Shown here: positions 1 through 27,431 of the stretch, piece by piece | Numbering within the stretch: the first letter of the stretch is position 1 | Layout: each line of letters opens with the position of its first letter | DNA from: Baffinella frigidus | Lineage: Eukaryota; Cryptophyceae; Cryptomonadales; Baffinellaceae | DNA length: 27,985 nucleotides | Direction: 5' to 3' | NCBI GenBank assembly: GCA_026770585.1 | Contig: MU647131.1 | Span: 34,344 to 62,328 of the forward strand | Notes under the pieces: model-generated | Seen by the model: the letters and a program-made list of their open reading frames with translations, nothing else | What the model was told of the DNA's origin: nothing | Databases searched by the model: none | Translations under genes and position numbers: made by a program

Positions 1-815
1 ACCCTGAACCCTGAACCCTGAACCCTGAAACCCAAACCCTGAACCTTGAACCCTGCACCCTGAACCCTGCACCCTAAAACCTAACCCCTCAAACCTAACC
101 CCTCAACACAAACCCTCAACCCCCAACCCCCAACCTTAAACCCCACGCCCCAAACCCTAAACCCAACACACTCCACCCTCCACCCTCAGCCCTAAACCCA
201 AACCCCGAAAACCCAAACCCTGAACCCTAAACCCTAAACCCTAGACCCTAAACCCTTAAACGTTAACCCTAAACCCTAAACCCTAAACCCTAAACCCTAA
301 ACCCTAAACCCTAAACCCTAAACCCCAAACACTAAACCCTAAACCCTAATCCCTGAACCCCAAACCCTACACCCTAAACCCCAAATCCTAAACCCTAATC
401 CCTTAAACCCTAAACCCCAAACCTCAAACACTAAACACTAAACTCTTAACCTTAAACCCTCAACCCTTAACCCTCAACCCTAAACCCTAAACCCTAAACC
501 TTGAACCCTACACCCTACACCCTAAACCCTAAACCTCAAATCCTGATCCCTAATCCCTATACCCTGAACTCCAAACCCTGAACTCAACCCTCACCCTCAA
601 AACCGAAACCCCAAACACCAAACACTACACCCTGAACCCTAAACTCCACACCCCAAACCTCTGAACCCTAAACCCTTCACCCTACACCCTAAACCTTACC
701 CCCTGAACCCTAGAACCTAAACCCTCAACCTTTGACCCTTAACCCTACTCTGTACCCCAAACCCTAAACCCCGAACCTCAAACCCTCAACCTTCAACCCT
801 CAACCCTAAACGCGG
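1..815 (+). repeat. Degenerate telomere-like repeat, C-strand orientation
   Basis: The stretch is almost entirely 7-mers of the CCCTAAA type with many variants (CCCTGAA, CCCTCAA, CCCCAAA, CCCTACA). The longest pure CCCTAAA run is about 265-330. It is too degenerate for a working chromosome end, and it lies upstream of the exons of an N-terminally incomplete gene. I therefore read it as interstitial, probably an intron of that gene. Confidence 0.9.
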
Positions 816-931
816 TGCGCACAAACGCTGGCAGGGCACGCGTACGCGGCGTCATCGCGGGAGGAGGCAGCAGCCATCAGCGATCAAGAGTGCAGGTCTG
901 CCGCGAACCCCCCCCCATGCACCCTGCAGGT

Positions 932-1950: not shown

Positions 1951-2785
1951 ATCTTGCCTGTCCTGCAACTGACAGCGCTTGCCTGTACGCGCGCGGCAGG
2001 GCCGCCGCCGCCTTCGCGCAGAGGCTCGCGGACGCAGGGGTCGCGTGTCCCGTGATCTCGGTCGGGAGTACTCCCGCGTGCGCCGCCGCGGACAAGTTCC
2101 CGGGGGTTACGGAGATCCACCCGGGGAATTACACCTTCTACGACCGCCAGCAGGTGCCGCACCCGCCCTACATCCTGCACCAGGCCGCCACACTTCAAAC
2201 CTATACCCTACACCCTGCACCCTACACCCTGCACCCTACACCCTACACCGTACACGCCCTCCAAGTACACTTCACTGGGGATGGCTGGTGGACTGCCCGT
2301 GACGGCGAGGTTACGTTGTCGTTTCGGCGTTCCCCAACGTTAGCGTCGCCGGTCAGCTGCCGGCCGTCTCTCGTGCGTAGCATGTCCCAGCGACGAATAG
2401 ATGGCTGTCACGTCCTGACGGCACGTGCGCAGGTGGCGGTGGGCGGCTGCCAGGAGGGGGACGTGGGCGTGACGGTGCTGACGCGCGTCATCGGACACTA
2501 CGCGAGCCACATGCTGTGTGACACTGGGTCCCTCGCCGTGTCCAAGGATGTTGCGCCCCAGGATCAGGTTTCTGGGTTGCGTTTTAGGGTTTAGGGTTTA
2601 GGGTTCAAGCAGGGACCAGGTTGATTGCAGGGGAGTTGAGGAGACGCGGTACCAGGAGTTCCAGGACCGCCTATTTCACTGCAGACTCGTATAAACGATG
2701 GACCTCCCAATCCTACACTCTACACCCTACACCCTCAACTCTAAACCATAACCCTCACTCAATCCTCAACCCTCAACCCTCGACC

Positions 2786-2873
<88 letters not shown>

Positions 2874-5800
2874 ACCCTGAAGTCTAACCCCTAACCCCTA
2901 AACCCTAAACTTCAAACCCTAAACATAATCCATAAACCTTGACTCACGAACCCTGGACAACGTTCTCCCCAACAGGCGTTTGGCGCCGTGGCAGGGCATG
3001 CATGGTGTAGGGAGTAAAGTGGGTGTGTCGTGTAGGGTGCGGGGGGTAGCGTGTTGATGTTGACACCCACCACGCCGACCTGCACCACCAGGCGTTTGGC
3101 GCCGTGGCAGGGCATGCGCTGCTCCTGCAGTCTGTTTCGCAGGAGGTCGGCAAGCTTGTGGTCTGGCCCCAACCCGATTTGATTTGTCTGAGTCTTTTTC
3201 ATCACAAAGCATCAAAGCATGAACCCCGTTTTGGCGTGTTTCAACCCTGAATCCTAAGCCCTAAGCCCTTACAACTGAACCCTGCCCTCAAACCTAAATC
3301 CTGAACCCTAAACCCTAGGCCCTAGGCCCTAGGCACTAAGCCCTAAGCCCTAGGCCCTGAGATCTGAACTCTAAATCCTAAACTCTACTCTCAGTCCTAA
3401 ACCTCAAACCCTGAAACCTATACCCTAGGCCCTAGACACTGAGCCCTAAGCCCTAAGCCCTAAGCTCTAACTCTAAACCCTGATCCCTAAACCCTAACCC
3501 TAACCCTAAACCCTAAACCCTGAACCCTAAACCCCAAACCCTAAACCCTGAACCCTAAACCCTAAACCCTAAATCCTAAACAACAAACCCTAAACCCTAA
3601 ACCCTAAACCCTAAACCCTAGACCCTAGACCCTAAACCCTAAACCCTAAACCCTAAACCCTAAACCCTAAACCCTAAACCCTAAACCCTGAACCCTAAAC
3701 CCTCATCCCTAAACCCTAAACCCCTAAACCCCAAACCCTAAACCCTAAACCCTAAATCCTGAATCCTAAAAACTAAAACCTGGAACGTAAACCCTAAACC
3801 ATAAACCATAAACCCTCAACCCTCAACCCTCAACCCCAAACCCTAAACCCTAAGCCCTCAATCCTGAAACCTGAACCTTAAACCATAAATCCAAAGTCCT
3901 GAACCCTGAACCCTAACCCCTAAATCCTAAATCCTACACCCTACACCCTACACCCTAAACCCCAGCCCTCAACCCTCAACCCTCAACCCTGAATCCTCAA
4001 CCCTAAATCCTCAACACTCAACACTCAACACTCAACACTCAAACATAAATCATACACCATCAGCCATAAACCCTAAACCCTAAACTCTTAACCCCTCACC
4101 CTTAGCCCTTAACCCTACACCCTAAACCCTAAACTTGATACCCTAAACCCTAAACCCTAAACCCTAAACCCTAAAACCTAAAACCTAAAACCTCAACCAT
4201 CAACCCTGAACCCTTGACTCTCGACCCTCGACCCTCAACCCTCAACCCTGAATAATGAAACCTAAACACTAAACCATGCACCCTGCACCCTGCACCCTGC
4301 ACCTTGCACCCTGCACTCTACACCATACACCCAACACCCTACACCCTACACCCTGCACCATACACCATACACCCTACACACTACACACTACACCCTACAC
4401 CCTATACCCCACACCCTACACACTGCACCCTACACCCTACACCCTACACCCTACACCCTACACCCTACACCCTACACCCTACACCCTACACCCTACGCCC
4501 TACACCCCACACCCAACACCCTGCACCCCACACCCTACACCCTACACCCTACATCCTACAACCCACACCCTAAACACTGAACAATGAACACTGAACCCTA
4601 AACCATAAACCCTAAACTCTAAACCTCAAACCCTCAACTCCAAACCTCAAACCCCAGACCCCAAACCCCAAACCCCAAACCCCAAACCCCCAACCCCAAA
4701 CCCCAACGCGAAGCCCTGAAACCTCAACCCTTTTCTCGCATGACGCCTTGCATGACTGATGCCCGCTCGCCTATCGGCAGGTCGCAGGAACCATGGCTGC
4801 CCCGAACCCCGCAGACTACCCTGTGGGGACGCTGCTGCAGATCGTTCCGAACCACTCATGTGTGCTCCCCCGCATCCGCCATGCATCCTCCTGCCTTGCG
4901 TTGGGTTTGGGGGTTCAGGGTTCAGGGTTTAGGGTTTAGGGTTGCCGACCAAAGATTTCTTTCCAAGTTCAGCCACGGCTGTTTGGGTGGGCCCCTCTCG
5001 GTTTTCTCCGAGATTCACAACCTGTCTCGTGCAGGAGTGTGCCCCCCTCCAACAGGTGCCTACAGGGGTACCCAAAGTAGAAGACAACGCCCTCATCTTG
5101 CACCCTACAGCACGCCGATACCTAGAGCCGTGTTTTTATCTCAGATACCTAGAGCCGTGTTTTTATCACGCCGATCCCTAGAGCCGTGTTTTTACCTTGA
5201 GGGTGGGACGGTGTCTCGAAATCGAGGCCCTGCAATGGTGAATCGGCCTAGGAACCTTCCGTGCGCGTGACCCAGCCTAGGATTTAAGGTTCAGGGTTTA
5301 GGGGATCCCTCAAGTGGCCAGGCAGTTTGACGGCCAAGAGGTCGTAGGCAGGTCCTAGGGCCCTACGGTAGGGCGTATGAGCCTACTGGGCATTTGAGGG
5401 GTAGGGTTCTTGGCATGCTGGCAAACGCGACGGCACGGTCACGTCGGGGTGCGCTCAGCCCCCGGCAGGCTTGCCAGCCGCGCCCGTTCCTCGGGTCCGT
5501 CCTACAAGGGTACCTCGCTCATAAAAAAACGCCCCCCGCTAGGACCCTGCAGTAGGCCTATGCCTAGGGCTCTATGGTGGTCGTAGGGGGTGGACGTTTT
5601 CTTGTGAGCGAGGTACCCCTGTAGCTCGCAGGGAACCTACGCGGCTGCCAGGCCTGCCTCCAGCACGGACTACCTCCACGTTGCCATCACGCGCTACTCC
5701 TGGAACTTGTCCTAGGATCATAACCTTAAAGCGTAGGTTCCCTGAGAGACAGGCCAGTCACCTTGCCCTAACCCTCAACCATGAACACCTGGAACCTGAA

Positions 5801-5985
5801 CCCGCATCCCCCAACCCTAGGCCAGACAGCGGCGTGCCACCTGACCCTAACCCTCAGCCCTAACCACCTAAAACCTGAAACCTCAACCCTGAGCCCCAGG
5901 CTTGACAGCGGCGTGCCACCCAGTCTACTACGTCGTCGAAGACGGCAAGGTCATCGATGCCTGGCACCCCTGCCGAGGATGGTAG
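1951..5985 (+). CDS. D-threonine aldolase / D-serine dehydratase-like PLP enzyme, N-terminus missing
   Basis: Five exons encode the C-terminal half of a fold-III (alanine-racemase type) PLP enzyme: about 1951-2153 (start uncertain, 1951 or 1976), 2433-2567, 3092-3157, 4781-4859 and 5900-5985 (TAG). The last four joins are in frame. Family signatures are ISVGSTP (PLP-phosphate loop), [32 protein letters not shown]...[38 protein letters not shown] and the terminal AWHPCRGW. The His and Cys of NHSC are the metal ligands known in this family, and the Cys codon is split by the last intron (T|GC). Known members cleave D-threonine or D-allothreonine, or deaminate D-serine; which of these this one does cannot be decided here. 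The PLP-binding lysine lies in the missing N-terminal part, probably upstream of the window. Introns of 279, 524, 1623 and 1040 nt are rich in telomere-like repeat. An optional exon at 2620-2688 is open but not needed by the family alignment. Confidence 0.88.
2182..2252 (+). repeat. CCCTACA-type repeat in aldolase intron
   Basis: About nine 7-mers, mostly CCCTACA and CCCTGCA, lie 30 nt after the donor at 2154. Confidence 0.85.
2712..2935 (+). repeat. CCCTCAA-type homogenised repeat in aldolase intron
   Basis: CCCTCAA is repeated almost without error from about 2765 to 2878, flanked by CCCTACA and CCCTAAA variants. A short G-strand TTTAGGG run (2584-2604) sits just after the donor of the same intron. 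Confidence 0.9.
2973..3117 (+). repeat. Duplicated acceptor plus exon start
   Basis: A 29-nt sequence is repeated exactly at 2973-3001 and 3089-3117. It includes the CAG acceptor and the codons for AFGAVAGH. Only the second copy continues into coding sequence; the first reaches an in-frame stop (TAA at about 3017). The 87 nt between the copies contain decayed TGTAGGG-like 7-mers. Confidence 0.92.
3240..4737 (+). repeat. 1.5-kb telomere-like array filling one intron
   Basis: C-strand 7-mers fill nearly the whole intron 3158-4780. Sub-blocks have their own dominant variant: CCCTAGG/CCCTAAG (3310-3470), CCCTAAA (3490-3740), CACTCAA (4012-4042), CCCTACA (4318-4560) and CCCCAAA (4650-4705). The array ends about 45 nt before the acceptor of exon 4781-4859. 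Confidence 0.95.
4905..4944 (+). repeat. Short G-strand TTTAGGG/TTCAGGG run after a donor
   Basis: About five G-strand 7-mers lie 45 nt downstream of the donor at 4860. The same intron ends in C-strand repeat next to its acceptor (5765-5899). Confidence 0.9.
5117..5194. repeat. Three tandem copies of a 27-29-nt unit
   Basis: GATACCTAGAGCCGTGTTTT is present at 5117 and 5144, and as GATCCCTAGAGCC at 5173. It is intronic. Confidence 0.9.
5304..5403 (+). mobile_element. MITE family A, copy 1
   Basis: This is a ~100-bp element in the last intron of the aldolase-like gene. Its termini resemble the family TIR TATCCCTCAAGTGGCCA, though the left end reads GATCCC and the right end GGGGTA. It carries the conserved core GGTCCTAGGGCCCTACGG. 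It encodes nothing. Confidence 0.85.
5503..5623 (+). mobile_element. MITE family B, copy 1
   Basis: A 121-bp element with TIRs TACAAGGGTACCTCGCTCAT and the complement ATGAGCGAGGTACCCCTGTA (here TGTGAGCG). The interior is rich in CCTAGG palindromes. It lies in the last aldolase-like intron. Confidence 0.85.
5630..5743. mobile_element. Miniature inverted-repeat element with 13-bp perfect TIRs
   Basis: AGGGAACCTACGC (5630-5642) and GCGTAGGTTCCCT (5731-5743) bound 88 nt of unique sequence, six nt after MITE B copy 1. Only one copy was seen in the window. Confidence 0.6.
5765..5897 (+). repeat. C-strand telomere-like repeat before the last aldolase exon
   Basis: Degenerate CCCTAAC, CCCTCAA and CCTGAAA units run up to the acceptor at 5899. 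They contain a 23-nt advance copy of the exon boundary (5819-5841 against 5898-5920, two mismatches). Confidence 0.88.
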
Positions 5986-6194: not shown

Positions 6195-6316
6195 CAGGGG
6201 TACCTCGCTCATAAGAATCAGCCAACCCCTAGCTAGGACCACCGTAGAACCCTAGGCATAGGCCTAATGTGGGGTCCTAGGGGGGGGAGTTTTCTTATGA
6301 GCGAGGTACTCCTGTA
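6193..6316 (+). mobile_element. MITE family B, copy 2
   Basis: A 124-bp element with left TIR TACAGGGGTACCTCGCTCAT and right TIR ATGAGCGAGGTACTCCTGTA. Confidence 0.92.
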
Positions 6317-6363
6317 GCCGTGTCTTGCACGCCAGGCTCTGGGGACACAGTCTCTACTAGAAA

Positions 6364-7319: not shown

Positions 7320-7411
7320 GGAGCAGGCCTCATGTGTGAGGCCCGCTCCATGAATGGCCCACCTCGGGACAGACAGGCCCTCTTCTGATGCGCCTAATGA
7401 TCAGAAGAGGG
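7320..7411 (-). promoter_or_regulatory. Two stem-loops at the 3' end of the STAR gene
   Basis: The first hairpin has arms 7320-7332 and 7337-7349 (12 of 13 pairs, TGTG loop). The second has perfect 12-bp arms, 7378-7389 and 7400-7411, around a 10-nt loop. The second contains the STAR stop codon (7403-7401) in its stem. They could affect 3'-end formation or mRNA stability; a role is inferred from position only. Confidence 0.5.
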
Positions 7412-8218
7412 AGTAAACCCCCCCGCCGAAGGGGTTGGAGGAAGCGGGGAGAGACGAGCCGTACGACAGCACCGGCATGTGCATGTCCAGCTCCCGGGGC
7501 GGCGAGCGCGAGTAGGGGTTGAAGCGCGACTTGCTGCCCGCAGGGGGCGACGTGCGGCGGCAGACCAGCCCGTCGGCCTTGCTCGCTGCGGGGTTGAAGG
7601 TCGCGTTGACGTTGAAGTTGGAGTTGGGGCGGTTGGAGGAGCCGAACGGGACGCGCGCGGGCGCCTGGTATGGGTTGTAGGAGATGGCGCCCTGGTCGTA
7701 CTCGTGCGCGGAGGGCAAGTCGTACTCGTCGAGGTCGAACTGCGGCGCTGCGATGTTGTTGGCCTGCGAGCGCCAACGCTCCTGGCTCCGCGGGGTGTCC
7801 GGGATCGACATGAGGAAGCACGGCGACGTCTCCCCCTGCTTCGAGAAGTTGTCGCGCCCCTTGGGCGTACACGTCACGCCCGCGTTCTCGCCCGACCTCC
7901 GCGCCGGCGACGGCCGTGCGGCCTGCGCCTTCGGAGAGGACGGTGCGACGTTCTCTGAGTCGTTCTCTCCAGGGGGGACCCAGAGCTTTGAACGCTCGGC
8001 GGGCGTGGGCGCAGGCTGCCCCGGGGGGACGAACGGCGCTGCGTCGACGGCGATGCGCCCACGCTGCTGCTGCTGCTGCGCCTGGTTCATCTTGAACGCG
8101 GCGGCCGCGTTGCTGGCGATGGTGGCGTTGTTGAGGTTGTTGTTGTTGTTGTTGTTGTTGAGGGGCGCGCGCATCGCGACGTTGTTGGGCATCGCGACGT
8201 GGTTGTTGGTGTTGTTGG

Positions 8219-8249
<31 letters not shown>

Positions 8250-10042
8250 GCCGTTGATGTTGACAGACCCGGCGTGGAACGGCGGACGCTGCTGCTGGCT
8301 CTGCTGCTGGCTCTGCTGCTGGCTCTGCTGCTGGTTCTGGAGGAAACGCTGCTGGTTCGAGAAGTTGCCGGCCATGGCCTGGTTGTTGAAACCCGGCGCC
8401 GCGCGACCGTTAGGCCCGAAGTTGCCCCCGACAGCCGGAGGGTACATGTGCGCCGTGGTGTTGTTGGCCGCGTGGAAGTTGGCCTGCTGCTGGATCTGCT
8501 GCTGGGCCTGAGCCTGGGCCTGCTGCTGCTGGGCCTGCTGCTGCTGCTGCTGGGCCATCAACGCGCGCTGCTGCAACATCGCGCGCTGCTGCTGAAGCAT
8601 GTTCATCGCCTCCTGCGGGAAGAAGCCCTGCGCGTTCCCGCCCCCCTGGTTGCCGTGCGGCATCTGTGCCATGCCCACGGGCGGCGCGCGGCGGTTGGCG
8701 ACGGCGAGGAGGGTCTTGTTCTCCTTGTAAGTGCCGTTGAGGATGGCGAGCTCCTTGAGCTGCGTCTTCTTGAGCTCGTCCGTGTCGTCGCTCTCGGGCG
8801 GCACCAGGAGCATCCGCACCTGTAGGGTGCAAAACGTGAGTCAGAGACGGTAGGGAATCTGGAAGCTAACGCTCATCAACCACACTCTTGTCACCTCCAT
8901 CAACCTTCCTATCCAGGATGCTTTGTCGCTGCGCCAGCGACTCACAAGTCGCCCCAGAGAAGAACAAGGCAAGAGTCTGGAGTGCGGTGGTGACGGAGCA
9001 AGGGGGAAAAGAATAGAGGAAAGACCTGACGCTCGGCGAGAAGAAGCGCAGCCTCCCGCGCATCAGGCGGGCCCTGATGCTCGATCAGAAGATGCAGTTC
9101 CTCGTTGAGGTGCTCGAACCCCGGGAGGCGCGCCTTCTGGGCCTCGAGGTGCGGGTCTGCGGAGCGGAGCGAGCCGCGCCCGCGGATGAAGAGGCGGCAG
9201 CCCGAGTCGTTCTCGAGCTGCTTGAGCGTCGCACCGCGCGGGCCGAGGAGGCGCCCGATGAAGTTGTATCCGGGGTAGTCTTGCACGGGGATGCGCACCT
9301 GTGATGAGCACGCCACGCAAGCCCGTCAGTCCCACCTCGTGCCATCCTCAAGATCAAGGCGTTCCAGTGATCCAGCAGTCAGTTTGAAAGGAGGGGGGGG
9401 TGCGGGGAAAAGCAACGGATTTGACATGAGATCGTGGATGGTGCCGTAACGCACCTTGATCTGGACCTTCTCGGCCGCCTCGGCGTGGGAAGGCGAGGAG
9501 GTCGAGGGCTCCTGGATGCGCTCCTCGGAGATCGTGGAGGTCTCGCTGGTCTCGGACTCGCGCGGAGACGGCACATCTTCTTGCTCGTCGGAGGAGGATG
9601 AGGTTTCGGTGAACGTGACCTCGGCGGCGGAGGCGAGACGCACTTCGTTGAGCGCGGAGTTCAGGAGACGCGCAGTTGCGTGGCGGGGATCGGAGGACTG
9701 TGCGCGCGAGGGAGTCTCGGGGCCGCCAAGGGGGAGAGCAGCACGGCCCACGCGTCCGGCAGGGTCAGCGGAATGGGAATGGCGAGCAGCCGGCGAGACG
9801 CAGCGCGCGGCGGCGCGGCGCTCCGTGGAGATGCGGGTGATCTCGGTTTGGAGGAGCATCTTGCTGATGGAGAACTGTCCCGCGAAGCGGCGGAGGTGCT
9901 CGAGCTCCACGGAAGCCTGCTCGAGCGTGAAGGGGCCGCGGTCCTGGGAAGCAGGAGCCTGCGCGGCGGCAGGCGGCGGCGGAGCGGCGGCGCCGCACGG
10001 CGAGCGCCCCCTCCGGGCGCTGCGGTTCGTCTTGCGAGTCAT
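7401..10042 (-). CDS. STAR-family KH RNA-binding protein (Quaking/SF1-like) with Q/N-rich tail
   Basis: Three exons on the minus strand, 10042-9455, 9298-9026 and 8819-7401, join in phase 0 with GT-AG introns of 156 and 206 nt, giving 759 aa. Residues ~45-73 (SVELEHLRRFAGQFS...LLQTEITRIS) resemble the QUA1 dimerisation helix. The KH domain starts near 197 (VRIPVQDYPGYNFIGRLLG) with the GPRG RNA-binding loop at 215-218, then CRLFIRGRGS and HLNEELHLLI. QUA2 follows at about 288-325 (LLVPPES...KKTQLKELAILNGTY). STAR proteins bind ACUAA-type RNA motifs and control splicing, stability or translation. The remaining ~430 residues are low-complexity: Gln runs, pure AAC-coded Asn runs, then an Arg/Ser/Pro-rich end. 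The donor AAG|GTGCGT at 9454 was chosen because it alone restores the KH start. It diverges from the DnaJ gene and has no telomere-like repeat in its introns. Confidence 0.93.
8107..8600 (-). repeat. Coding triplet repeats (AAC)n and (CAG)n
   Basis: On the plus strand (TTG)10 fills 8221-8250, with further TTG runs at 8137-8160. CTG-rich runs lie at 8290-8340 and 8490-8600. On the coding strand they specify poly-Asn and poly-Gln in the STAR protein. Uninterrupted AAC codons suggest recent slippage expansion. Confidence 0.92.
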
Positions 10043-15622: not shown

Positions 15623-18515
15623 ATGCCGGCCGTGTTGGTAGTAATGATGATATCTTTGGGTGCTGTATGTGCGTGCAGGTAAGTGCACGCACGGGTTTAG
15701 GTTTTAGGGTTTAGAGTTGAGGGTTTAGGGTGAAGGGTGAAGGGTGTGTAGAGGTTTGGGTTTAAGGTTTAGGGTTTAGAATTAGGGGTGTATGGTCAAG
15801 GTCGTGGGGTTGAGGGTTTAGGGTTCAGGGTTTAGGGTTTAGGGTTCAGGGTTCGAGTTCAGGGGATTGAGTTTTTAGAGTTTAGTGATTTCGTTTTAGG
15901 GTTTAGGGTTTGAGGTTTGAGGTTGAGGGCATAGGGTTAAGGGTTAAGGGTTCAAGGTCCATATTGTGGGGGTTAGGGTTGAGAGTTTAGGGTTCAGTGT
16001 TTAGGGTTCAGTGTTTAGGTTTAGGATTTGAGTGTTCAGGGATTAAGGTTTGAGGGTTGAGTTTTTGGGGTCTAGGGTTGAGATTAGGGTTTAGTGTTTA
16101 GGGTTTTGGTTTAGGGATGAGGGTTTTGGTTTTGGGGATTAGGGTTCAGGGTTTAGAATTGAGAATTTGGAGTCAGGATTGAGGGTTTAGGGGTTCTGGG
16201 TTTGGGGTTGAGGGTTTGGATTTTAGGATTTAGAGTAATAGTTCAGAGTTCTGGAGTTTAGGGTTGAGGGTTTGGGGGTCCGGGTTCCGGGAATATGGAT
16301 AAGGGTTTAGGTGTTTGGTTTTGGTTTGAAAGCTTAGGGGTTTGAGGTTTAGGTTTGAGAGTTAAGGGTGAAGGGTGAAGGGTGTGTAGAAGTTTGGGTT
16401 GAGGGTTTAGAGTTTAGAATTAGGGGATCATGGTAAAGGTTGTGGGGTAGTGTGTTTAATGTTTAGGGTTTGGGGAATATAGTTCAGGGTTGAGGATTTA
16501 CTGTTTTTGGCCCCCTTTCCCCCGCCTGGAACCTGAACAAAAAACAAATCAGGGTTGAGGTGGCCCTTTCGACAGGTTATTTCAATCAGGCCGCTCAAAA
16601 AAACGGCTTTAGGAATTAGGGTTTGGGGTTTCAGGTCTAGGGTTCAGGGTTCAGGGTATAGGGTTTAGGATTCAGGGTCTGAGGTTTGAGGTGTAGGGGT
16701 TCAGTGTTGAGGGTCTAGGGTTTAGGTGTTTGGGGTTTAGTGGAGCAGGGTTTGAGGGTTGAAGTGTCAGAAGTTGAAGTGTCAACGTTCAGGGTCTGGT
16801 TTTGGGTTTTAGTGTTTTGGGTTTGGGGTTCATTGTTGAGGGTTTAGGGTTGAGGGTTAAGGTTGAAGGTTTAGTGTGTAGGATTTAGAAGTCAAGGTTT
16901 TCAAGGTTGAGGGTTTATAATTTTGAGGAAAGGGTTAAGGATTCAGGATTCATGGTTCTGGGTTTAGTGTTTAGTTTTTAGGATTGAGGGTTTAGGGGTT
17001 GAGGTTCAGGGTTATTGTTAGGGGTTCAGGGTTTAGGTTTGTAAGTTTATGGTTCAGTGGTTTAGTGTTGAGTGTTCATGGTTTTATTTGTAGGTTTCAG
17101 GGTTCAGGGTACAGGGTTCAGGGTTCAGGGTTCAGGGTTCAGGTTCAGTGTTTAGTGTTCAATGTTATGAGGTTTCGAGGTTTCCATGCAAGATGTTGTG
17201 TTGACTTAGGAAAACAATCCATTTCACACGGAATTTGTACCATTTTTAAAAACTTCCAGTGTTCGGGGGGATGAAAGTCCACTAATTAACTTTCATAATC
17301 GTTAGATTCTGACGATTCCTGCTGTAAGTCAGTCAGCTCAAAACTTCTACGTGGTTAGGGTTGAGTGTTAAGTGTTTGGATTTTAGGGATCAAGGTTTGG
17401 GGTGGAGTGTTTTGCCCGTGACTGGTACACAAAACTCAACAACTACGTTCAGAAATAGTTCCACTTCTCGAGTCATTTGAGTCGAAGTCAACTCAAGAAA
17501 ATTATTTCAAAATATCTCCAAAAAGTGACTGAAAAGGAGTAAGTGGCGATGGCCATCACGTTTCAAGCCTGAGACAAGACCCAGCTAATCTGAACGCCGA
17601 GTAAATTTAAAACGTTGCACGTTAGAATACTGCAAGTCTTCCGTTGGTGCCCGAGGACAACTTAAGAAAACTATCTTCAGGGCAGTGACTGAAATTAATA
17701 GTTGAAGCCCATAACTAAAGATTTGTAAAGTTGCTTTTGTTGTACATGTTATAAAATTCGACTCACTTAAAACTCGAAGCGGCTCGAATTCGTTTGTCAA
17801 ACCCCCATGGTTTTAAGATTTTTACCAAAACCCAGCGACTTGACAAATGTTAGTTTATGGGCCTCGATTGAGTGGCAAAGGTCATATATGCGCTGCTTCC
17901 AGCCAAACCAGTTCAGCCCCTGTCCCCCCACTCCCCGCACCTCAACTGGCCATATTCTCCCCCCTTCCCCCTTGAAGATTTTTGATTTTTTTAGGCCTTG
18001 AGATGACCGAAAGTACAGGTTATTTGGATCAGGCGGCTCAAAAACCGGCTATATGGTTTCAAGCCGAAACAAGACCCAGCTGGCAAGTAGAACGCGAGGC
18101 TGGGCAAACTCGCACGCGTCTTGCCGAATGATTGATCCTGTAGGTCCTTCAGGTCCTTTAGGTTTTGATTTCTCCAACATAGGCGAACATCAAGACTTTC
18201 CGTAGAAAAAGGGGAAAAGGCGAAATTTAATAAGTTGGTAAACCGACGGCACACGCCATTTGACCAGAGGGCTCAAGCTGCCCTCGACCACCCCGGAGGT
18301 TAGATATGGAAACTAATGTCTCGTCCACCAGGGCGAAAAAGCATTTTTTGCTTTCGGATCGCGTTGAGCTCTCCAGTGCAGAGGCTCGTGGCGAGCGGCT
18401 GAAGGGTGGTTCTCGAGTGGTGTGTTTGCGTTACCCCACCGAGGAACGCGCTCGCACTCACACCAGCACCCCAAGCCAGCCTTTATGCGGCCCCTTAATG
18501 GTTCACATGAAGTGA
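15623..18515 (+). CDS. Tentative two-exon small secreted protein
   Basis: An ATG at 15623 opens a short hydrophobic, signal-peptide-like exon (MPAVLVVMMISLGAVCAC) ending at the strong donor CAG|GTAAGT (15679). The next phase-compatible candidate is 18332-18515 (acceptor CACCAG; AKKHFLLSDRVELSSAEARG..., TGA). Joined, they give 79 aa with no family I recognise. The intron would be 2.65 kb and contain the G-strand array and AT-rich island. The first exon is more believable than the pairing; the second may belong elsewhere or be noncoding. Confidence 0.28.
15690..17165 (+). repeat. 1.5-kb G-strand telomere-like array
   Basis: TTTAGGG, TTGAGGG and TTCAGGG 7-mers with heavy decay begin 12 nt after the donor candidate at 15679. 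A TTCAGGG block is locally homogenised at 17095-17140. About 110 nt of non-telomeric sequence (16501-16610) interrupts it. Confidence 0.95.
16568..18082. repeat. Dispersed repeat fragments in and beside an AT-rich island
   Basis: ACAGGTTATTT..ATCAGGC(C/G)GCTCAAAAA..CGGCT occurs at 16571-16607 and 18015-18050. GTTTCAAGCC(T)GA.ACAAGACCCAGCT occurs at about 17560 and 18056. They look like remnants of one noncoding element. The surrounding DNA (17166-18300) is visibly more AT-rich than the rest and shows no convincing gene. Confidence 0.7.
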
Positions 18516-18785: not shown

Positions 18786-18788
18786 GAC

Positions 18789-18999: not shown

Positions 19000-19911
19000 A
19001 TGGTTACCACACCGCATCGCGCTAGTGCGGCCCTCACACTCACGCTCCTCATCGCCTCGTGCTCGCCGGCAGTCCATCCCAGAGGAAGGGGTGGAGCCCA
19101 CAAGAGGGCGTCATCAGACGTCAACGGGGTCAAATTTTGGGAGACAGCCCTTGGGGGGGTCGAATCAGGCGCGACGATGGGGGATGGGCCGCGTGGGCAT
19201 CCCGGGCCGCGTGGGAGAGAGAACCCCGGCGCGCAGATCCGGCCGTCGATTTCCTGTGATCCCTCTGTGGATCCTTTCCAAGCGATCCAGGCCTCTGTGT
19301 CTTCCGTACCATCCTGGGCAAGCTCCAAGGGGCTGGACCTTCCCACACCCCGCGGCGCCACAGCGTCCGGCAGCGCCCAGCTGTCTCGAACAGCGCTTTC
19401 CAGGGAGGGTGCCAGGGGATCGGCCTATGCAAGCAGCGGCAGCTGGCAGGCGGGTGGGGTTGACCGGATGGGTGGGCGAGGAGGAGGAGGTGCAGGGTGG
19501 CAGCACACGGGGGAGCAGTGGAGAGGAGCGCGAGGATCGGCTTCGGATCGAGGGGGTCAGTGGCGGGGGCGAGGGAGGGGCCGCTGGGGCGGGGGAGAGC
19601 AAGCGCCGAGCAGGGTTCGGGCCCTTGCTTGATTCCAGAATGCACCGCTGGGAGAAATTGTCACAGCGCTCGAGCTGTGCGACCTTGACCCCGCAGTGCG
19701 GCCCTTCGCGCGACAATGGCAGCGAGGGCGTGATGAGCAATCGCCACCTGCAGTGCGCGATCCCGCGCTGCCGATTCAGCGGGTGGGGGATGGGAGCAGA
19801 GCACGGTGTGATGGAGGGGTTTGCGGTGGGCAGGCGGGCCGCACGTGGGATTTGCCGACGGCGCTGCTCAATGAGGAAGCCCTCACGCAAGAGGTACCCA
19901 ATCGCGCTTAG
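19000..19911 (+). CDS. Probable RGG-rich protein coding stretch with one in-frame TGA
   Basis: From an ATG in good context (GAGATGG) one frame runs 210 codons to TGA at 19630-19632, then continues in the same frame to TAG at 19909-19911. It starts with a hydrophobic segment (ALTLTLLIASCSPAV) and has an Arg/Gly/Trp-rich stretch at about residues 155-201 (GGQWRGRGRGRWGGG), typical of RNA-binding RGG boxes. After the TGA the protein-like text goes on (PLGEIVTALELCDLDPAVRP). The TGA lies inside a 24-nt GTTCGG...TTCCAG segment that would splice in frame if such a small intron is possible. An in-frame stop in a pseudogene, or a larger intron, are alternatives. GAG|GTACCC at 19894 is a good donor, so the stretch may continue into the next gene. 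No family was recognised. Confidence 0.5.
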
Positions 19912-19916
19912 TGCTT

Positions 19917-20790
19917 GGAGTTTAGGGTTTAGAGTTTAGGATATAGGGTTTAGGGTTTAGGGTTTAGGGTTTAGGGTTTAGGGTTTGGGGTTTAGGGTTT
20001 AGGGTTTAGGGTTTAGGGTTTAGGGTTTGGGTTAAGGGTTCCGGCTTGAGGCTTTATGGTTTAGGGTTGAGGGTTTCAAATTTAGGTTTTAGGGTTGAGG
20101 TTCAGGGTTTGGGGGTCAGGGTTCAGGTTTCAGGGTTTGGGTTTACGGTGGGGGTTAGGTGTGAAGGGTTAAGGGTGTAAGGTTTAAGGTTGAGGGTTTA
20201 GAGTTCAGGATTCTAGGCATCTAGGGGTAAGGGATTTTGGGTTTAGGGTTTAGGGTTTAGGGTCGAGGGTCGAGGGTTGAGGGTTGTGTTTTTAGAGTTT
20301 AGGGTTCAAGTTTGAAGGTTTAGGGTTCACGGTTTTAGGGTTCTGGGTTTAGGGTTCTGGACTTATGGTGTCAGGGTTCAAAGGTTCAGGTTCAGGGTTC
20401 AGGGTTCAGGTTTTAGGGATTAGGGTTCAGGGTCAAGTTTGTGTGGGTGTAGACACTTAGGGTTATAAGGTTTAGGGTTTAGGCGTTAGGTTTTGGGGTG
20501 TAGGGTTTAGGGTACAGGGTCTAGTTTTGAGGGTTTAGGGTTTAGGGTTCAGAGTTTAGGGTTTTAAGATTTAGGGTTTAGTGGTTAGGGTTCAATGGTT
20601 TGGGGTTCAGTAGTTAAGGTTTAGGGTTTAGGGTTTAGGGGTTGGTGTCTTGGGTTTAGAGTTTTGGTTTTTCGGTCTGCGGGTTCGGGGTGCAGGGTTC
20701 AGTGTTTGGGTTTCAGGTTCAGGGTTCCAGTGATTAAGGGTTCTATGGTACCGGGTCATAGGCTTTTGGGTGCTGGGTGTTGGGGCGAGG
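19917..20790 (+). repeat. 0.9-kb G-strand telomere-like array
   Basis: Nearly pure TTTAGGG at 19945-20030 decays rightwards into TTCAGGG, TTGAGGG and TTTTAGG variants. It begins ~23 nt after a possible donor (19894). Confidence 0.95.
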
Positions 20791-20805
20791 GTTGAGGCTT
20801 GATAG

Positions 20806-21963
20806 TGGAGTGGTCAGAATTCAAGGACAATGTTGCTTTGATTGGCGTTCAATTTCTGATCAAACCCGGCCTCCTCGGGAGGATATACATGGTGTCCATG
20901 TTACTCATACACACGTTTTTTTTTCGTGCGGCGGACATATATGCAACATATATATGCTCTCAACTGCATATGATTTTCACTAAATACGATTTTCAAACTG
21001 GGGGTGCAGGAGTTGGAGGCGACTCCTGAGGGAATGGTCGATTCTGCGCGAAAGATCATCTCGACCCTCAACACAACCCTCATCGCGGTCAAATCCCTAA
21101 ACCCTAAACCTTAGACCCTAAAATCTGAACCCTAACCCCTCAATCCTATTGCCTAAACCCCTAGACCCTAAACCCTAAACCTAAACCCTAAACCCTAAAC
21201 CCTAAACCCTAAACCATAAACCCCAAACCCTGAACCCTGAACCCTGAACCCTAAACCCGGAACCTTTAACTGTGAACACTAAACCCGGACCATGAACCCT
21301 AAAATTTGAACTCGGAACCCTGCATCCCAAACCCTTAACCCTAAACCCTGAACCCTACACCCTAAACCCCAAACCCTCAACCTTCAACCCTATACCTCTG
21401 ATGCAGCACACTGCTGAGCGCTTGAAAGCCACGACGGCGACTCTTGATGGAATCTCCACCCTCCTATATACCAGAAAAGGGATGGCACGTTGTCATTCCC
21501 TGGATCACAAATGCTGAACTCCAAACGGTACACCAGAACGGGAAGAAGGAGGTGCAGGTTGCAAAGCGGATGAACAAGGCCATCGAGCCGTTGACACGCC
21601 GCCAGCGGTCAGCGTCCCCAAACTTCAAACCCTAAACCCTAAACCCAAAACCCTCATCCCCAAAACCTAGATCCTAAACCCTAAACCCTCAACCCTAAAC
21701 CCTAAACCCTAAACCCTAAACCCTAAACCCTCAACCCTCAACCCTTATCCCTCAACCCTCAACCCTATACCCTAAACCCCAAACCCGCAATCCCTAACCC
21801 TAAACCCTAAACCCTACAACCTTAACCCGAAACCCTGAACCCTAAACCCTAAACACCCAACAATCCTAAAACCTCAACCCGCAATCCTAAACCCTAAACC
21901 CTAAACCCTAAACCCTGAACCCTCAACCCTCAACCCTAAACCCTAAACCCTAAACTCTAAACC

Positions 21964-21995
<32 letters not shown>

Positions 21996-24607
21996 ACCTT
22001 AAATTCTGGCATCTCTCGGGTTGCTTGCAGCCATGAGCTCCCTGACTTGATGAGCGTTTCTCCTGGGACCAACTCCTGGGTGACCAACCCCGCAAGTTGC
22101 CGAGCCACAGGTTGTCTTGGTACACCAAGCACGCCCGGTTTAGCGGTCGAGGTTGTGCACACGACAGGAGCAGTGAGCCTGCTTGATCGAGGTGCGGGTT
22201 CAGTGAGCCCTGGCGTCTACCCCCTGGGATCCTACAGCGTGTGCGCCACCTCGACCACACTGCAACATCCGTGGTTGGCAAAACACAACGTGGTCCGAGG
22301 ACGAAACCCAAGAGAGAGCGAGCGAGGGAGAGCGCGAGAGCGAGAGAGGGAGGGACGGACGGAGGGAGGGAGGGAGGGAGGGAGACCTGATTGGCGTCAA
22401 CTGTGAGGCCCACAAGGACTTGACGTAGGAGGAGTGGGCAGCAGCGCTCCAACGTCAAGTCCAGAGCAGCAACGTGGTCAGAGAGCAAAAATCCTTGACG
22501 TGGGATGGGGTTGGTAACCCACGACATGGTCCGAGGACGAAACCCCTCTTGAATTCGGAGGGGTGAGCAGCAAAGAGCAGCGCGACCTCATGGCAACCCT
22601 CCAAACTAAGATCGAGGAGATCGAGACCGCCCCGCTCATCTCTGAGATTGATCACCGCACTCACGCCCGCAAGGTCTGTCCCTTGACCACCGCACCAAGA
22701 CCCGCAATTTGACCACCGCCCCCACGCCCCCAAGGTCTGTCCCACCACTCCATGCACTCACTTCTCACGCTAGACACTCGTTTCACACCGCGCACGCTAG
22801 ACACTGACTTCTCACGCCAGACACTGACTGCATTCGCTTTAACTAGGCTCTTTGGGAAACGTTGATGTTCTTCTGGAAATGAAATTCCCGGGTCTCTGTT
22901 TTTTTGGAACCCCCTCCTCGTTTGATGCGCGCAACAACCACGGGTGCTTCTCTGCCACGCATCATCGTCTCTAAAACAAATATCACTCCGCATTTCATGA
23001 GCCGCGTCATATTTATAAAACATGTTCAGGGTTCATGATGTTGATAAAAAGGTGTTGGATTATCTGAATGGAGAAGCGCGCGTGCAGGTTGCGGCACTCG
23101 GAGTGTTCCTGGCGCTGCCCTCCACCCTCGGCCACGCCGGCCTCGGTCTCTGCCGACCACTCTGCTTTAGGGTTTAGGGTTTAGGGTTTAGGGTTTAGGG
23201 TTATGGTTTAGGTTAGGGTTTAGGATTTGGGGTTTAGGGTTTAGGGTTTAGGATTTGGGGTTCAGGGTTTAGGGTTTGGGGTTTAGTGTTTCGGGTTTGG
23301 GGTTCGGGTTTCGGGTTTAAGGTTTCGGGTTTCGGGTTGAGGGTTTAGACCCTGAAGCAGCCTTGACGACAGCTCTTTCCGGGGAGGGTGCCCTGCAGGT
23401 TGCCCGCAACGCCTCACCATCCTCATAACCTCACGAATCCCCGCAGTTCACGCGACACCTGACACCCCTCGTGCGTCAAGTCCAGATGACGTGTGAAACG
23501 TGGGCAGAGGGTTTCTGGGAATCAAGGACGGTCCTATACTCCTAGGACGAGCCCTAGTGAAGGGCCCCAAGACGGTGTGCGTCCTAAACATCGAGAAACC
23601 TCCTCTGTACAGGGGGCCCGGACTGGGAGATGGAGGAGTACTGGCGGAAACAGAGGGAAGCGAAGCTGCGAGAGCGCGCGGATCCCCTCGATCCCTTCTC
23701 TCCCACCAGAAAGTGGTTCAACGCGTCCGAGGTCTAGCTCTGCCTCACTTAAATTGGTCTCGTCATTTGTCTGGTCGCATCGTTTGACGAGACCGGAAGT
23801 TGACTTTCTTGTTTTGTGGGACAAATCCGTCAACTTTTGGCGTGCAAACTGAGAAAATGATGAGACCAAATTAAGTCAGACATACTTAGGAGGTCTCCAT
23901 CCGATCTGCGCTTGTGTTTGATTTGAATACTCGGACCCATGGGAAATTGGAGTTTTCCTTGAGAATGAAGGCTGACGGCTCCAATCCCTGATGGGCGGAG
24001 AGCATTTAAATCAAACACCAACCCTGATTAGATATGTCTCCCTCCATCTGAGCGCGTTGAAATGACGAGCTCAGGTGTTGAGTTCCTTGGTCCGTGGCAT
24101 AAATTTGACATATCTTGCCCTGCAATAGTCAGTTATTCCTCAAGTGCCCAGTAGGCTCAAACGCTCTACTGTAGGGCCCGAGGACCTGCCCAGGACGAGT
24201 TGGGGTGAATATTCACCCTATGGGGACTTATGGGATATCAACAGACTCAGAGCTAGGAGGGGTCTTGCTCGCCGAAGTGACCCTGCGCGTGTTTCTCCGT
24301 GCGGCTTGAGGCACAATGCAGCACCACAATCTTAGGCCGCTGTCTTCTTAACAAATGCACAGTGTGGTGGTGCTGGCTGTATTTGGGGCGTGTTTTTCCA
24401 CTTTGAAAAAAACTCTGTGGTGTCGGAGTAGACGCGGCCAGATCCAGAAACATTTCTTCGAGAAGATGACTCGATCACACATGCCTCACCCACACACCCA
24501 CTCCAGGCTTGAACATGAACACCCTACACCCTAAACCCTGAACTCTAAACCCCGAGCCCTGTACCCTCAAACCTCAACCCTCAACCCTCAACCCTCAACC
24601 CTAAACC

Positions 24608-24667
<60 letters not shown>

Positions 24668-27431
24668 ACCCGAAACCCTGAACCCTCAACCCTGCTCCCT
24701 TCACCCCAAACCCTCAACCCTTAACCCTCAACCCTCAACCCTCAACCCTCAACCCTAAACCCTAAACCCAAACCCTAAACCCTAAGCCCCAAGCCCCAAA
24801 CCCCAAGCTCTAAGCCCTACACCCTAATTCCCAAACCCTAAACCCTAAACCCTGAACCCTAAACCCCTCAACACCCGCAACAGGCGCGGGGGTTGATGCC
24901 AGATCGCGCGGACGAATTCCGCAAGTTGGGGGAATGGATGCCCGAAATCATCCAAGGTATGCCCTACCACTCTAATCTGCGGAAACGAGTTTTTCTTTCT
25001 TTTTTGGACCTTTCTGGCAACAAAAGTTACTACACAATTGGGGTTTACTACTAATGGTAAAGCCTCTGTGTAGCAATTTTCGTTGCTAAAAGGACCAAGA
25101 GAGAAATAGTGTTATTCATTTCGGGAGAAGAAGTCGGAAGGCAACGATTCACATCTCCCCTGGATATCCAGGTATAACGCGACCAAAAATTGCTGACTTT
25201 TGGCATGTTTCCCTCAAAAACAATCCTAATTAACTTGATAAATTCCCCGTAGTGTTCCGAGTGGACACCGGCCTCCGATGGGATTCGGTGAATACTCCGT
25301 ACGTGAATAATCTATAGGACCCTACTCAGGCCATACCGTAGGGACACAGGCTGGTCCTGTGGATGTCCTGACCGATTCTTGGTGGCTGGGCCAACAAGAA
25401 TCCCTGTGTACGCAGCCACCACGAATCCCTTTGTAGCCCTCTGGGTGGCTGTTCCTCGGTTCTAGCGAGACGACTTGCGTCACAGAGTCGGTTTCGACTG
25501 CAACGCGCTCCACCCTAACCCCTACACCCTACACCCTGAACCCCACACCCTCACCCCCCAGAGGCAAAGGACAACCCTCAGGACTGGGGAGGGGAAGAGG
25601 GGGACGACGAAGGACCGGGTGGGGCGGGAGAGAAGTGGCAGGAGACTCCTTGGTACTGCGAAGTCTGCGACGTACGCGCCCTTCCGTATCCCCTCTTCTG
25701 CTCTCTTGGCGTCTGCTCTTTCGACTCTCGGCGTCTTCTCTCTTCTGCCCTCTTGGCTTCTGCCCTCTTCTGCCCTCTCGACGTCTGCCCGCTTCTGCCC
25801 TCTTGGCTTCTTCTCTCTTCCGCCCTCTCGGCGTATCCCCTCTTCCGCCCTTTCACCTCTCGCCTAGCGTCTGCTTCCTCCTCTTCTCCTGCCCTCTCGC
25901 CTTCTGCCCTCCCGTCTCTCGCCTGGCGACTGCCCTCTCGCCCCTCTCCTGCACGCGCCGCCCTGCCTGATCTCTTCTCCTGCCCTCTCTTCTCCTGCCC
26001 TCTCGCCTCTCGCCTCGCGTCTGCTTGCTCCTCGGCTTCTACCCTTTCGCCTTCTGCCCTCTTCTGCCCTCTTGCCTTCTGCTCTTTCGACTCTCGGCGT
26101 CTGCCCTCTTCTGCCCTCCCGTCTCTCGCCTGGCTTCTGCCCTCTCGCCTCTCGCTGTACTCACTTCTTCTTTATTACTCTCGATACAGGTCCTAAATGA
26201 GGCCCTTGAGCCTCGAGTTGAGTGACACAAAAGTCTATGCTCCTTCAGAAACGGGCCCGTCTCAGAGACAAGAGCTGCACTCACTGCCGACACGCCTTTC
26301 CATCCACCCACCATCCGCTTTCCGCGTCCTATTGCTCAACGAAGCCCCCCCCCCCCTTGTATGTCGGTGCACCCCAGTAGTCTGAAAAAATTCATCCCCA
26401 TAAAAGTATTGATTAATCCCTTTTGGCGTAACGCAATCTACTACCAAAACGCTCTACTATTACTTGTATGGCCCATCCGTGTAGTGATGTTTGTTGCCCA
26501 AAAATAATTAATGAAGACTTCTATGGAGACAAACGTGTGGTGCCGATTTCGAGTCTACCGCCCGGACCACGCCCCAGCAGAAGTTGTTTCTATTACCAGC
26601 ATTGCTGGATAAATCTAGGTCCTACTCGGACACAGTTCTTGCCACTTAATACGTGATGGTGGTCAATCAAAAGTTGCCGCACGGACAGGTTCCAGCAATT
26701 TCCTGAAAGTCGGCGAAAGTGGACCCGAGGCCTCACGGGAGTTGACTTTTGCGATTTACCCCCCTCAGGTCTAGCGTAGCGTGCTGCCAAGAGGGCATAC
26801 TCGATCAGCGCGGGCGGTGCGAGGATACACATCACCAAGTTGTTTTCATCACCAGTATTGCTGGATAAATGTAGGTCCTACTCGGACAAAGCCCGCGGGC
26901 GCCGAGAGGGGTGGCTAGCCGCCCCGGGAGGACTTATCCGATCAGCGTGGGCGGCGCTGGGCAGACATGGGCAGAGGCTCATGTGAATCCTCGCGAGGAT
27001 GCCCATGAGCGCAGACGCATCAGCGCATGCACACTCATGCCTTTCCGGGCACTGATGCCTGCCGTGTTTCACTCTCAACCCCTAGTTAGGGTTGAGGGGT
27101 AGTCAGGGTTGAGGGTTGATATGGACAGATGGTGCAGCGCGCACCGCGCGCATCGTTGCACATCCAGCGTCACTTTCATCCATTCCGTACTCCACCAAGC
27201 TTGCGGGAACAGGAAAGCACCACCGCGGTCTGCACATGCCTTCCCAAGTGAAATGTCTTGATCGTTTGGCGCATTTCGAAGTGAAATGGTTTGATCGTTT
27301 CCGAAGTGAAATGTTTGGGGCATTAGGTGTCGGCGACGAACGATATGATGTGGCTGGATCACGTGAACGGCATCAAGCACAACAAGATGCTCGGGTATTC
27401 GATGCGCCACAAGGAGGAGTCCCCCCTCGAG
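20806..27431 (+). CDS. Coiled-coil / hydrophobic / U1-type C2H2 zinc-finger protein, partial
   Basis: Phase-compatible exons: about 20806 or 20818-20891, 21010-21087, 21407-21484 (end uncertain, GC donor), 21558-21607, 22571-22673, 23088-23145, 23613-23731, 24884-24956, 25562-25671 and 27327-27431. Together they encode ~280 aa. In order: FKDNVALIGVQFLIKPGLLG; helical segments (SARKIISTLNTTLIA, MATLQTKIEEIETAP); a hydrophobic stretch VAALGVFLALPSTLG; charged DWEMEEYWRKQREAKLRER; DEFRKLGEWMPEIIQE; acidic WGGEEGDDE; then the finger PWYCEVCD|VSATNDMMWLDHVNGIKH (C-x2-C-x12-H-x5-H). The finger and the following NKMLGYSMR resemble the U1/matrin-type finger of the spliceosomal protein ZMAT2/SNU23. 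The upstream part is not like ZMAT2. It may be two genes (split between 23145 and 23613). It continues past 27431. Introns carry telomere-like repeat, MITE A copies and foldbacks. Confidence 0.7.
21098..21400 (+). repeat. C-strand telomere-like repeat in zinc-finger gene intron
   Basis: CCCTAAA and CCCTGAA variants fill the intron 21088-21406 almost completely. Confidence 0.93.
21628..22006 (+). repeat. C-strand telomere-like repeat in zinc-finger gene intron
   Basis: CCCTAAA and CCCTCAA blocks, including homogenised CCCTCAA at 21965-21998, begin ~20 nt after the donor at 21608. Confidence 0.93.
22040..22570. other. Intron remainder with purine-rich microsatellite and internal repeats
   Basis: A GAGC/GGGA purine run spans 22312-22384. 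GTGGTCCGAGGACGAAACCC appears near 22290 and as ATGGTCCGAGGACGAAACCC near 22525. A weak advance copy of the next exon boundary is visible (GGAGGAGTGGGCAGCAGCG near 22427 against GGAGGGGTGAGCAGCAAAG near 22558). Confidence 0.7.
22653..22742 (+). repeat. Duplicated exon end plus donor
   Basis: CACCGCACTCACGCCCGCAA followed by GGTCTGTCCC (22653-22682) recurs as CACCGCCCCCACGCCCCCAA plus GGTCTGTCCC at 22713-22742. The first copy is the end of exon 22571-22673 with its donor; the second is intronic. Further short tandem repeats (CACGCTAGACACT) follow to about 22830. Confidence 0.85.
23164..23350 (+). repeat. G-strand telomere-like repeat after a donor
   Basis: TTTAGGG runs, decaying to TTTCGGG, start ~20 nt after the donor at 23146. 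Confidence 0.93.
23742..23880. mobile_element. Foldback/MITE-like element with ~28-bp terminal inverted repeats
   Basis: ACTTAAATTGGTCTCGTCAT (left) and ATGATGAGACCAAATTAAGT (right) pair with few mismatches. A nested AAGTTGAC...GTCAACTT inverted repeat lies inside. It is intronic, starting ~10 nt after the donor at 23732. Confidence 0.82.
24134..24237 (-). mobile_element. MITE family A, copy 5, inverted and diverged
   Basis: A 104-bp element with ends TATTCCTCAAGTGCCCA and ...GACTTATGGGATA. The core TCTACTGTAGGGCCC is diverged from the other copies. Confidence 0.85.
24510..24880 (+). repeat. C-strand telomere-like repeat before an acceptor
   Basis: CCCTCAA is homogenised at 24572-24665 and 24725-24755, with CCCTAAA and CCCCAAG elsewhere. 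It runs to within ~10 nt of the acceptor at 24883. Confidence 0.94.
24995..25107. repeat. Long imperfect palindrome (foldback element)
   Basis: The left arm (~24998-25047, containing TTGGACCTTTCTGGCAAC and TACTACACA) pairs with the right arm (25058-25107, containing TGTGTAGCA and GTTGCTAAAAGGACCAA) around a ~10-nt loop. About 40 of 48 positions pair. It could form a miRNA-precursor-like hairpin in the intron transcript. Confidence 0.82.
25512..25560 (+). repeat. Short C-strand repeat at an acceptor
   Basis: CCCTAACCCCTACACCCTACA and similar units abut the acceptor CCCCCCAG|AG at 25561. Confidence 0.85.
25680..26165 (+). repeat. 500-nt pyrimidine-rich repeat in intron
   Basis: Variants of CTTCTGCCCTCTCG and CTCTTGGCTTCTGCC recur about every 11-24 nt on the coding strand, starting ~10 nt after the donor at 25672. 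Apparent open frames here are composition artefacts. Confidence 0.9.
26166..26583. other. Intron sequence with no feature recognised
   Basis: Mixed-composition sequence with a C10-11 run at about 26346-26357. No gene or RNA is recognised. Confidence 0.5.
26584..26957. repeat. Two interleaved direct-repeat pairs in intron
   Basis: AGTTGTTT..AT.ACCAG.ATTGCTGGATAAAT.TAGGTCCTACTCGGACA occurs at 26584-26634 and 26838-26888 (about 46 of 51 identical). CGATCAGCG(C/T)GGGCGG(T/C)GC occurs at about 26801 and 26939. The pairs overlap in order, suggesting successive duplications. Confidence 0.85.
27246..27324 (+). repeat. Three short tandem units just before an acceptor
   Basis: AAGTGAAATG(T/G)-(C)TTGATCGTTT begins at 27246 and 27279. 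A third, truncated unit at 27304 (AAGTGAAATGTTTGGGG) runs to the TTAG acceptor at 27326. Confidence 0.85.

What the first reader, a model, noticed from the sequence alone, without database searches (positions are those of the whole stretch)
1..25560. Telomere-like DNA fills introns of three plus-strand genes but never exons
About a quarter of the window is degenerate TTTAGGG/CCCTAAA. It occupies large parts of introns in the aldolase-like, DnaJ and zinc-finger genes, up to 1.5 kb in one intron. In every exon I could anchor by protein family the repeat stops short of the splice site. The minus-strand STAR gene, with only two small introns, has none. Interstitial telomeric sequence as routine intron filler is not something I know as common.
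Basis: partly seen in the sequence, partly recalled or inferred. Interest (0 to 1): 0.85.

Follow-up and report, generated by a model that had tools for sequence, protein, structure and literature searches.

The report
Strand-sorted telomere-like repeats in introns
This cryptophyte alga carries a great deal of degenerate telomere-type repeat inside its chromosomes, and in the introns examined the long arrays nearly always have their C-rich strand facing the same way as the gene, which suggests that only the orientation free of splice-like letters is tolerated there.

Summary
The repeat is real: 25.3% of the window is TTTAGGG/CCCTAAA-like, 0.9% in a shuffle. The DNA is from the cryptophyte Baffinella. 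Protein-anchored exons hold 0 of 4,339 bp, their introns 3,228 of 11,002 (29%).

"Introns, never exons" needs two corrections. The repeats are not intron-specific: the likely intergenic 15145-19000 is 32% repeat, and 41 kb sampled elsewhere is 11%. Absence from exons is expected, since the perfect repeat has a stop codon in every frame of both strands.

The unexpected result is orientation. In six genes, arrays of 100 bp or more are C-rich on the sense strand in 15 of 15 cases; with the public zinc-finger model, 17 of 19. Genome-wide, acceptor-like CAGGTG within 30 nt follows C-rich arrays 676/416 times and G-rich arrays 151/115 times (forward/reverse).

CCCTAAA has neither GT nor AG; TTTAGGG has both in every unit. 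Best reading: expanded interstitial telomeric repeats, filtered in genes by splicing. Donor-side and background counts did not complete, and yeast data point the other way.

The parts
1951..5985 (+). D-serine-deaminase-like gene, 3' part (exons about 1951-2153, 2433-2567, 3092-3145, 4781-4873, 5922-5985); some boundaries approximate
   Evidence: PF14031 E 2e-13; homologs
2709..2940 (+). C-rich-on-sense array, 230 bp masked
3241..4732 (+). C-rich-on-sense array, largest in the window, in intron 3146-4780
7401..10042 (-). KH/STAR gene, two introns of 156 and 206 bp, no telomere-like repeat
   Evidence: KH E 3e-17
10302..15144 (+). DnaJ gene, 12 exons, all in frame
11108..11257 (+). C-rich-on-sense array in DnaJ intron 3
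11509..11613 (-). G-rich-on-sense array (96 bp masked), the longest such in the homology-anchored genes
12717..12939 (+). C-rich-on-sense array in DnaJ intron 7
13839..14140 (+). C-rich-on-sense array, 302 of the 340 bp of DnaJ intron 9
15691..17161 (-). Long G-rich (plus strand) arrays in likely intergenic DNA
19427..27752 (+). Zinc-finger gene as in public model T484DRAFT_1842862; protein-family support only for the 3' part
19913..20802 (-). G-rich array (766 bp masked); G-on-sense if the public model is right
21089..21397 (+). C-rich array (285 bp masked); C-on-sense if the public model is right
21620..22004 (+). C-rich array (385 bp); C-on-sense if the public model is right
23161..23350 (-). 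G-rich array (190 bp); G-on-sense if the public model is right
24518..24870 (+). C-rich-on-sense array in a zinc-finger gene intron

Best explanation
These are interstitial telomere-type repeats that have expanded through the non-coding DNA of Baffinella. Seeds entered the chromosomes (inferred: by break repair with telomerase or end joining), then grew in place by slippage or unequal exchange (supported: neighbouring units share variants) and decayed. Exons lack them because a perfect array has a stop in every frame. Inside genes, long arrays persist mainly with the C-rich strand on the sense strand (shown for six genes; supported genome-wide at acceptor-like sites). Inferred cause: CCCTAAA and its common variants have no GT and no AG, so the pre-mRNA gains no decoy splice sites (nor G-quadruplexes), while TTTAGGG offers both every 7 nt, so G-rich-on-sense arrays are purged or stay short.
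For: Arrays in six genes: C-on-sense 26, G-on-sense 6 (at least 25 bp); 19 and 1 (50 bp); 15 and 0 (100 bp), on both genomic strands (plus in the window, minus in L028-L030). Genome-wide CAGGTG within 30 nt downstream of C-rich arrays 676 forward, 416 reverse; of G-rich arrays 151 and 115. In the DNA in hand the repeat's own bias runs the other way (CAGG downstream: 38 for G-rich, 3 for C-rich). Dinucleotide content and stops. Exact 5-unit runs 9,698 forward, 9,049 reverse, control 0. Neighbouring variants identical in 131 of 619, 21% against 9% after shuffling.
Against: In yeast the C-orientation in a reporter intron lowers mRNA more than the G-orientation (PMC9272169, passages). With the public zinc-finger model two long G-on-sense arrays appear: 17 to 2. 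L027, fetched for its array, has it 3' of a minus-strand gene in the opposite sense and was left out. In the 94 kb or so in hand, CAGGT lies within 30 nt of pure C-rich 14-mers 0 times and of G-rich ones 5 times. Arrays in one gene are not fully independent. CAGGTG is not proof of an acceptor; donor-side and background-hexamer counts were not obtained.
Confidence: 0.5

Rival explanations
1. The orientation bias is made by DNA metabolism, not splicing: transcription or replication polarity makes C-rich-sense arrays expand and G-rich-sense arrays stall or break, so long arrays survive in one orientation.
For: In yeast, interstitial telomeric tracts show orientation-dependent rearrangement and expansion (PMC6410037, passages).
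Against: For human-type repeats in yeast, length change without selection did not differ by orientation (PMC9272169, passages). Long G-rich (plus) arrays exist next to DnaJ outside it.
Confidence: 0.25
2. No real bias: genic arrays fell C-on-sense by chance or by choice of genes, and the CAGGTG difference reflects other flanking sequence.
For: Six genes only; the zinc-finger gene may add two counter-examples; exon calls on L028-L030 rest partly on a codon score that made strand errors in the window, with two of three Pfam hits under the cut-off.
Against: 15 of 15 long arrays, and a genome-wide difference of about 3.6 to 4.5 fold against the repeat's own bias; the listed flanks are diverse.
Confidence: 0.13
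3. Telomeric insertion at breaks gives birth to introns: a staggered break at an AG|GT site is filled with repeat and the two copies serve as donor and acceptor.
For: Intron starts resemble the start of their own next exon: 76 against 52 +/- 6.6, P = 0.0008, 29 introns. 14 of 29 downstream exons begin with GT. One repeat-filled intron of L029 is flanked by near copies (BR_i9). Break repair with direct repeats is a proposed route of intron gain (PMC3443670, passages).
Against: The upstream side is weaker (P = 0.016). Strong copies of the next exon's start lie inside 3 of 29 introns, which looks like ordinary local duplication. Several of the 29 boundaries are approximate. Many arrays are outside genes; intron ages are unknown.
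Confidence: 0.12

Closest known systems
Interstitial telomeric sequences of mammals (short ITSs; PMC7215372)
   Same: Telomere-type repeats at internal sites, both orientations genome-wide, none in exons, some in introns.
   Different: Here the repeats fill 11% of a 41-kb sample and up to 89% of an intron, are degenerate with locally amplified variants, and are sorted by strand within genes. For human ITSs the intron share (31%) is called compatible with random insertion.
Yeast artificial introns carrying telomeric tracts (PMC6410037, PMC9272169)
   Same: Telomeric repeats inside an intron, with orientation-dependent effects.
   Different: Engineered; there the C-orientation was the more harmful to expression, the reverse of what Baffinella seems to tolerate.
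Introner elements and AGGT-duplication intron gain (PMC3443670; introners partly recalled)
   Same: Related sequence in many introns; AG|GT at both intron ends in some.
   Different: The arrays carry no splice sites of their own and also lie outside genes.

Membership tests
Interstitial telomeric sequence | Tandem telomere-type repeats away from chromosome ends | tested here: met
   Listed matches on contig C1 lie between 188 kb and 2.09 Mb of 2.12 Mb; the window is internal to C781
Interstitial telomeric sequence | Unit equals the organism's own telomere repeat | not tested
   Most contig starts that I fetched read N; TTTAGGG as the cryptophyte telomere unit is my assumption
Interstitial telomeric sequence | Inserted at once, with empty sites in relatives | not testable with these tools
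   No cryptophyte relative genome was searchable (one search says the genome has no relatives here)
Introner element | The element itself supplies the splice sites | tested here: not met
   CCCTAAA has no GT or AG; flanking splice-site sequences differ between introns
Introner element | Confined to introns | tested here: not met
   15145-19000 is 32% repeat with no supported gene
Intron gain by AGGT duplication or break repair | Direct repeat with AGGT at both intron ends | tested here: inconclusive
   P = 0.0008 in sum on the downstream side, P = 0.016 on the upstream side; carried by a few introns

The most novel reading that the evidence does not exclude
In Baffinella, telomeric repeat insertion at breaks is both a source and a lengthener of spliceosomal introns: staggered breaks at AG|GT sites leave a short duplication filled with telomeric repeat, and insertions that land C-rich on the sense strand are spliced out cleanly because they hold no GT or AG, so chromosome-end sequence became routine intron material with a fixed orientation.
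Probability: 0.15. Interest if true: 0.88.

Novelty: new variant of a known kind. Interest (0 to 1): 0.6.

Why it matters
Whether telomeric repeats in introns affect splicing is named as an open question in PMC7215372 (passages). A genome with very many natural arrays, sorted by strand inside genes, would let one measure which repeat orientation a spliceosome tolerates, and ask whether break repair feeds intron growth. It may also account for part of the size gap to Guillardia theta (534.5 against 87.2 Mb, 41.1% repeats; PMC9756366, passages); that link is not tested here.

Tried and rejected
Rejected: intron-specific filler (15145-19000 is as dense); exon avoidance as something surprising (stops in all frames); introners (no splice sites in the unit, arrays outside genes); decay alone without later growth (variant clustering).

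Led nowhere: Rfam found nothing at gathering thresholds. The codon score gave wrong strands in the window, for example 3050-3163 and 23617-23733, so off-window I used only genes that Pfam also touches: WD40 23.2 bits and bromodomain 17.9 bits are under Pfam's cut-offs, LRR_4 32.8 is above. Dropped from the orientation count: L027, picked for its array like L026 and L028-L030; its RWP-RK gene looks intronless by my reading and the 2.1-kb array lies 3' of it, G-rich relative to that gene's sense strand; and L026, where no exon was called. Likewise dropped: the arrays of 1-1950 and 15145-19000, assigned to no gene, and the upstream part of the zinc-finger model, reported separately.

Not achieved: genome-wide count of the 14-mer, family search PF00118, donor-side patterns. 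A pattern with CAGGTG before G-rich arrays would also be confounded by repeat variants.

Literature: searches listed no title or abstract start on telomeric repeats filling introns in a cryptophyte, or on their strand bias; only the listed papers were seen, and the library lacks most subscription journals. The main text of the Baffinella genome paper has 0 uses of 'intron' or 'telomer' (word search). PMC2246262 was seen in listings only.
Full report
What the DNA is. The window is contig C781:34344-62328 of a 382-Mb assembly in 1,364 contigs. The DnaJ protein from my 12-exon model matches Baffinella frigidus T484DRAFT_1581362, a partial record of 316 residues, at 303 of 320 aligned positions; the differences all lie where the public model lacks one exon. 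That exon, 14549-14603, is supported by Guillardia theta and other relatives, which have the same stretch. The published assembly of Baffinella sp. CCMP2293 is 534.5 Mb, with 41.1% repeats and 53.9% GC (PMC9756366, passages).

The observation. Marking every base covered by a 14-mer within three mismatches of the repeat gives 25.3% of the window, against 0.9% in one dinucleotide shuffle. In the four genes with protein support the mark covers 0 of 4,339 exon bases and 3,228 of 11,002 intron bases. Over 27,984 circular shifts zero overlap with exons has P = 0.0003, but exons found through protein similarity are biased against repeats, and a perfect array has a stop codon in every frame of both strands. 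Variants such as CCCTCAA are open on the C strand, so the exclusion is not absolute. The likely intergenic 15145-19000 is 32% repeat; 5986-7439 is 1%, 10043-10301 has none.

Beyond the window. Seven loci chosen without regard to arrays or genes (three of them continuations of readable contig starts) gave 4,583 of 41,167 readable bases, 11.1%, from 2% to 19% per locus. Exact runs of five units occur 9,698 times forward and 9,049 times reverse, overlapping matches counted, with none for the pattern read backwards. The window has 16 such matches, about twelve times the genome rate, so it is richer than average.

Orientation in genes. In the window, introns of the three plus-strand genes are mostly C-rich on the plus strand. 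To see whether this follows the gene I fetched five places on contig C1 chosen only because one search listed pure arrays there. Three held genes, all on the minus strand: WD40 (L028), bromodomain (L029) and LRR (L030) (two of the three Pfam hits are below the curated cut-off). Their long arrays are G-rich on plus, so C-rich on sense. Over the six genes, arrays of at least 25 bp are 26 C-on-sense and 6 G-on-sense; at 50 bp 19 and 1; at 100 bp 15 and 0. By my count the 15 lie in 12 introns; one of these, at the left edge of L028, is bounded by withheld DNA. Weakening this: the public model T484DRAFT_1842862 joins exons from 19427 to 27752 and, if right, adds two C-on-sense and two G-on-sense long arrays, giving 17 to 2. 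Its upstream part found no homolog but that model itself. Of the other two fetched places L026 had no gene called, and L027 had its array 3' of an apparently intronless minus-strand gene, in the opposite sense to it.

Genome-wide check. If intronic arrays are C-on-sense, acceptor-like CAGGTG should follow C-rich arrays more often than G-rich ones. Within 30 nt downstream of two perfect units the counts are 676 forward and 416 reverse for C-rich, 151 and 115 for G-rich. From the listings, forward counts several array starts per anchor and reverse one per anchor. Distinct anchors among the listed places on contigs C1 to C19, counted by hand, are 75 and 27, and 14 of those 27 end in TTCAGGTG, close to a variant of the repeat itself. 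In the DNA in hand the repeat's own bias runs against the result: CAGG lies within 30 nt downstream of G-rich 14-mers 38 times and of C-rich ones 3 times; CAGGT 5 and 0. A CAGGTG is not proof of an acceptor, and donor-side and background counts did not complete.

Why C on sense. CCCTAAA and the variants CCCTCAA, CCCTGAA, CCCTACA and CCCGAAA have no GT and no AG; TTTAGGG has one of each per unit. A C-rich-sense array adds no decoy donor or acceptor. This cause is inferred. Unmasked intron sequence has only a slight C excess on sense (skew -0.07). The yeast literature offers a rival and a contradiction: orientation-dependent breakage and expansion (PMC6410037, passages), and a stronger loss of mRNA with the C-orientation in a reporter intron (PMC9272169, passages).

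How arrays grow. Among 1,244 units from 49 arrays (window and five off-window loci), 22.5% are canonical and the fifth base varies most. Neighbouring non-canonical units are identical in 131 of 619 cases, 21%, against 9% after shuffling within arrays and 4% for random pairs: local amplification after insertion. How the seeds came in is not shown; for mammals, insertion during break repair is proposed, with direct duplications at some sites (PMC7215372, passages).

Intron birth. Across 29 introns, several with approximate boundaries, the intron start resembles the start of its own next exon more than that of other exons (76 against 52 +/- 6.6, P = 0.0008); the other side is weaker (P = 0.016). 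A strong copy of the next exon's start inside the intron was found in 3 of 29. Fourteen of 29 downstream exons begin with GT. This fits intron gain at AG|GT sites or just repeated small duplications; I rate the former low.

Verdict. The intron-exon contrast is expected, the intron-intergenic contrast is not supported in the window, and the sense-strand orientation is the part worth following. The decisive count needs the full genome with RNA-seq gene models.

Noticed in passing
window 10740-10790 (DnaJ intron 2), 13469-13496 (DnaJ intron 8), 2974-3001 (D-serine-deaminase-like intron 2): Partial copies of the start of the next exon lie inside the intron, 5' of the functional exon. L028 and L030 show several more such relics by eye.
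   Followed up: partly
window 5502-5624 and 6193-6316: Short inverted-repeat elements with matching ends (TACAGGGGTACCTCGCTCATAAG and its complement), MITE-like; further copies by eye near 6690-6810 and 15330-15470.
   Followed up: no
window about 5305-5400, 6027-6130, 14281-14390, 14865-14970, 24130-24236, 27490-27600: A second short repeated element with ends like ATCCCTCAAGTGGCCAG and its complement, seen by eye; several copies abut telomere-like repeats.
   Followed up: no
window 14549-14603: A DnaJ exon missing from the public Baffinella model but present in relatives.
   Followed up: yes
window 18788-18932: About seven copies of a 20-bp tandem repeat, CAAAAAGGGTCTTAGTATGT.
   Followed up: no
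window 10584 and 14604: Two of the 11 DnaJ introns begin with GC rather than GT.
   Followed up: no
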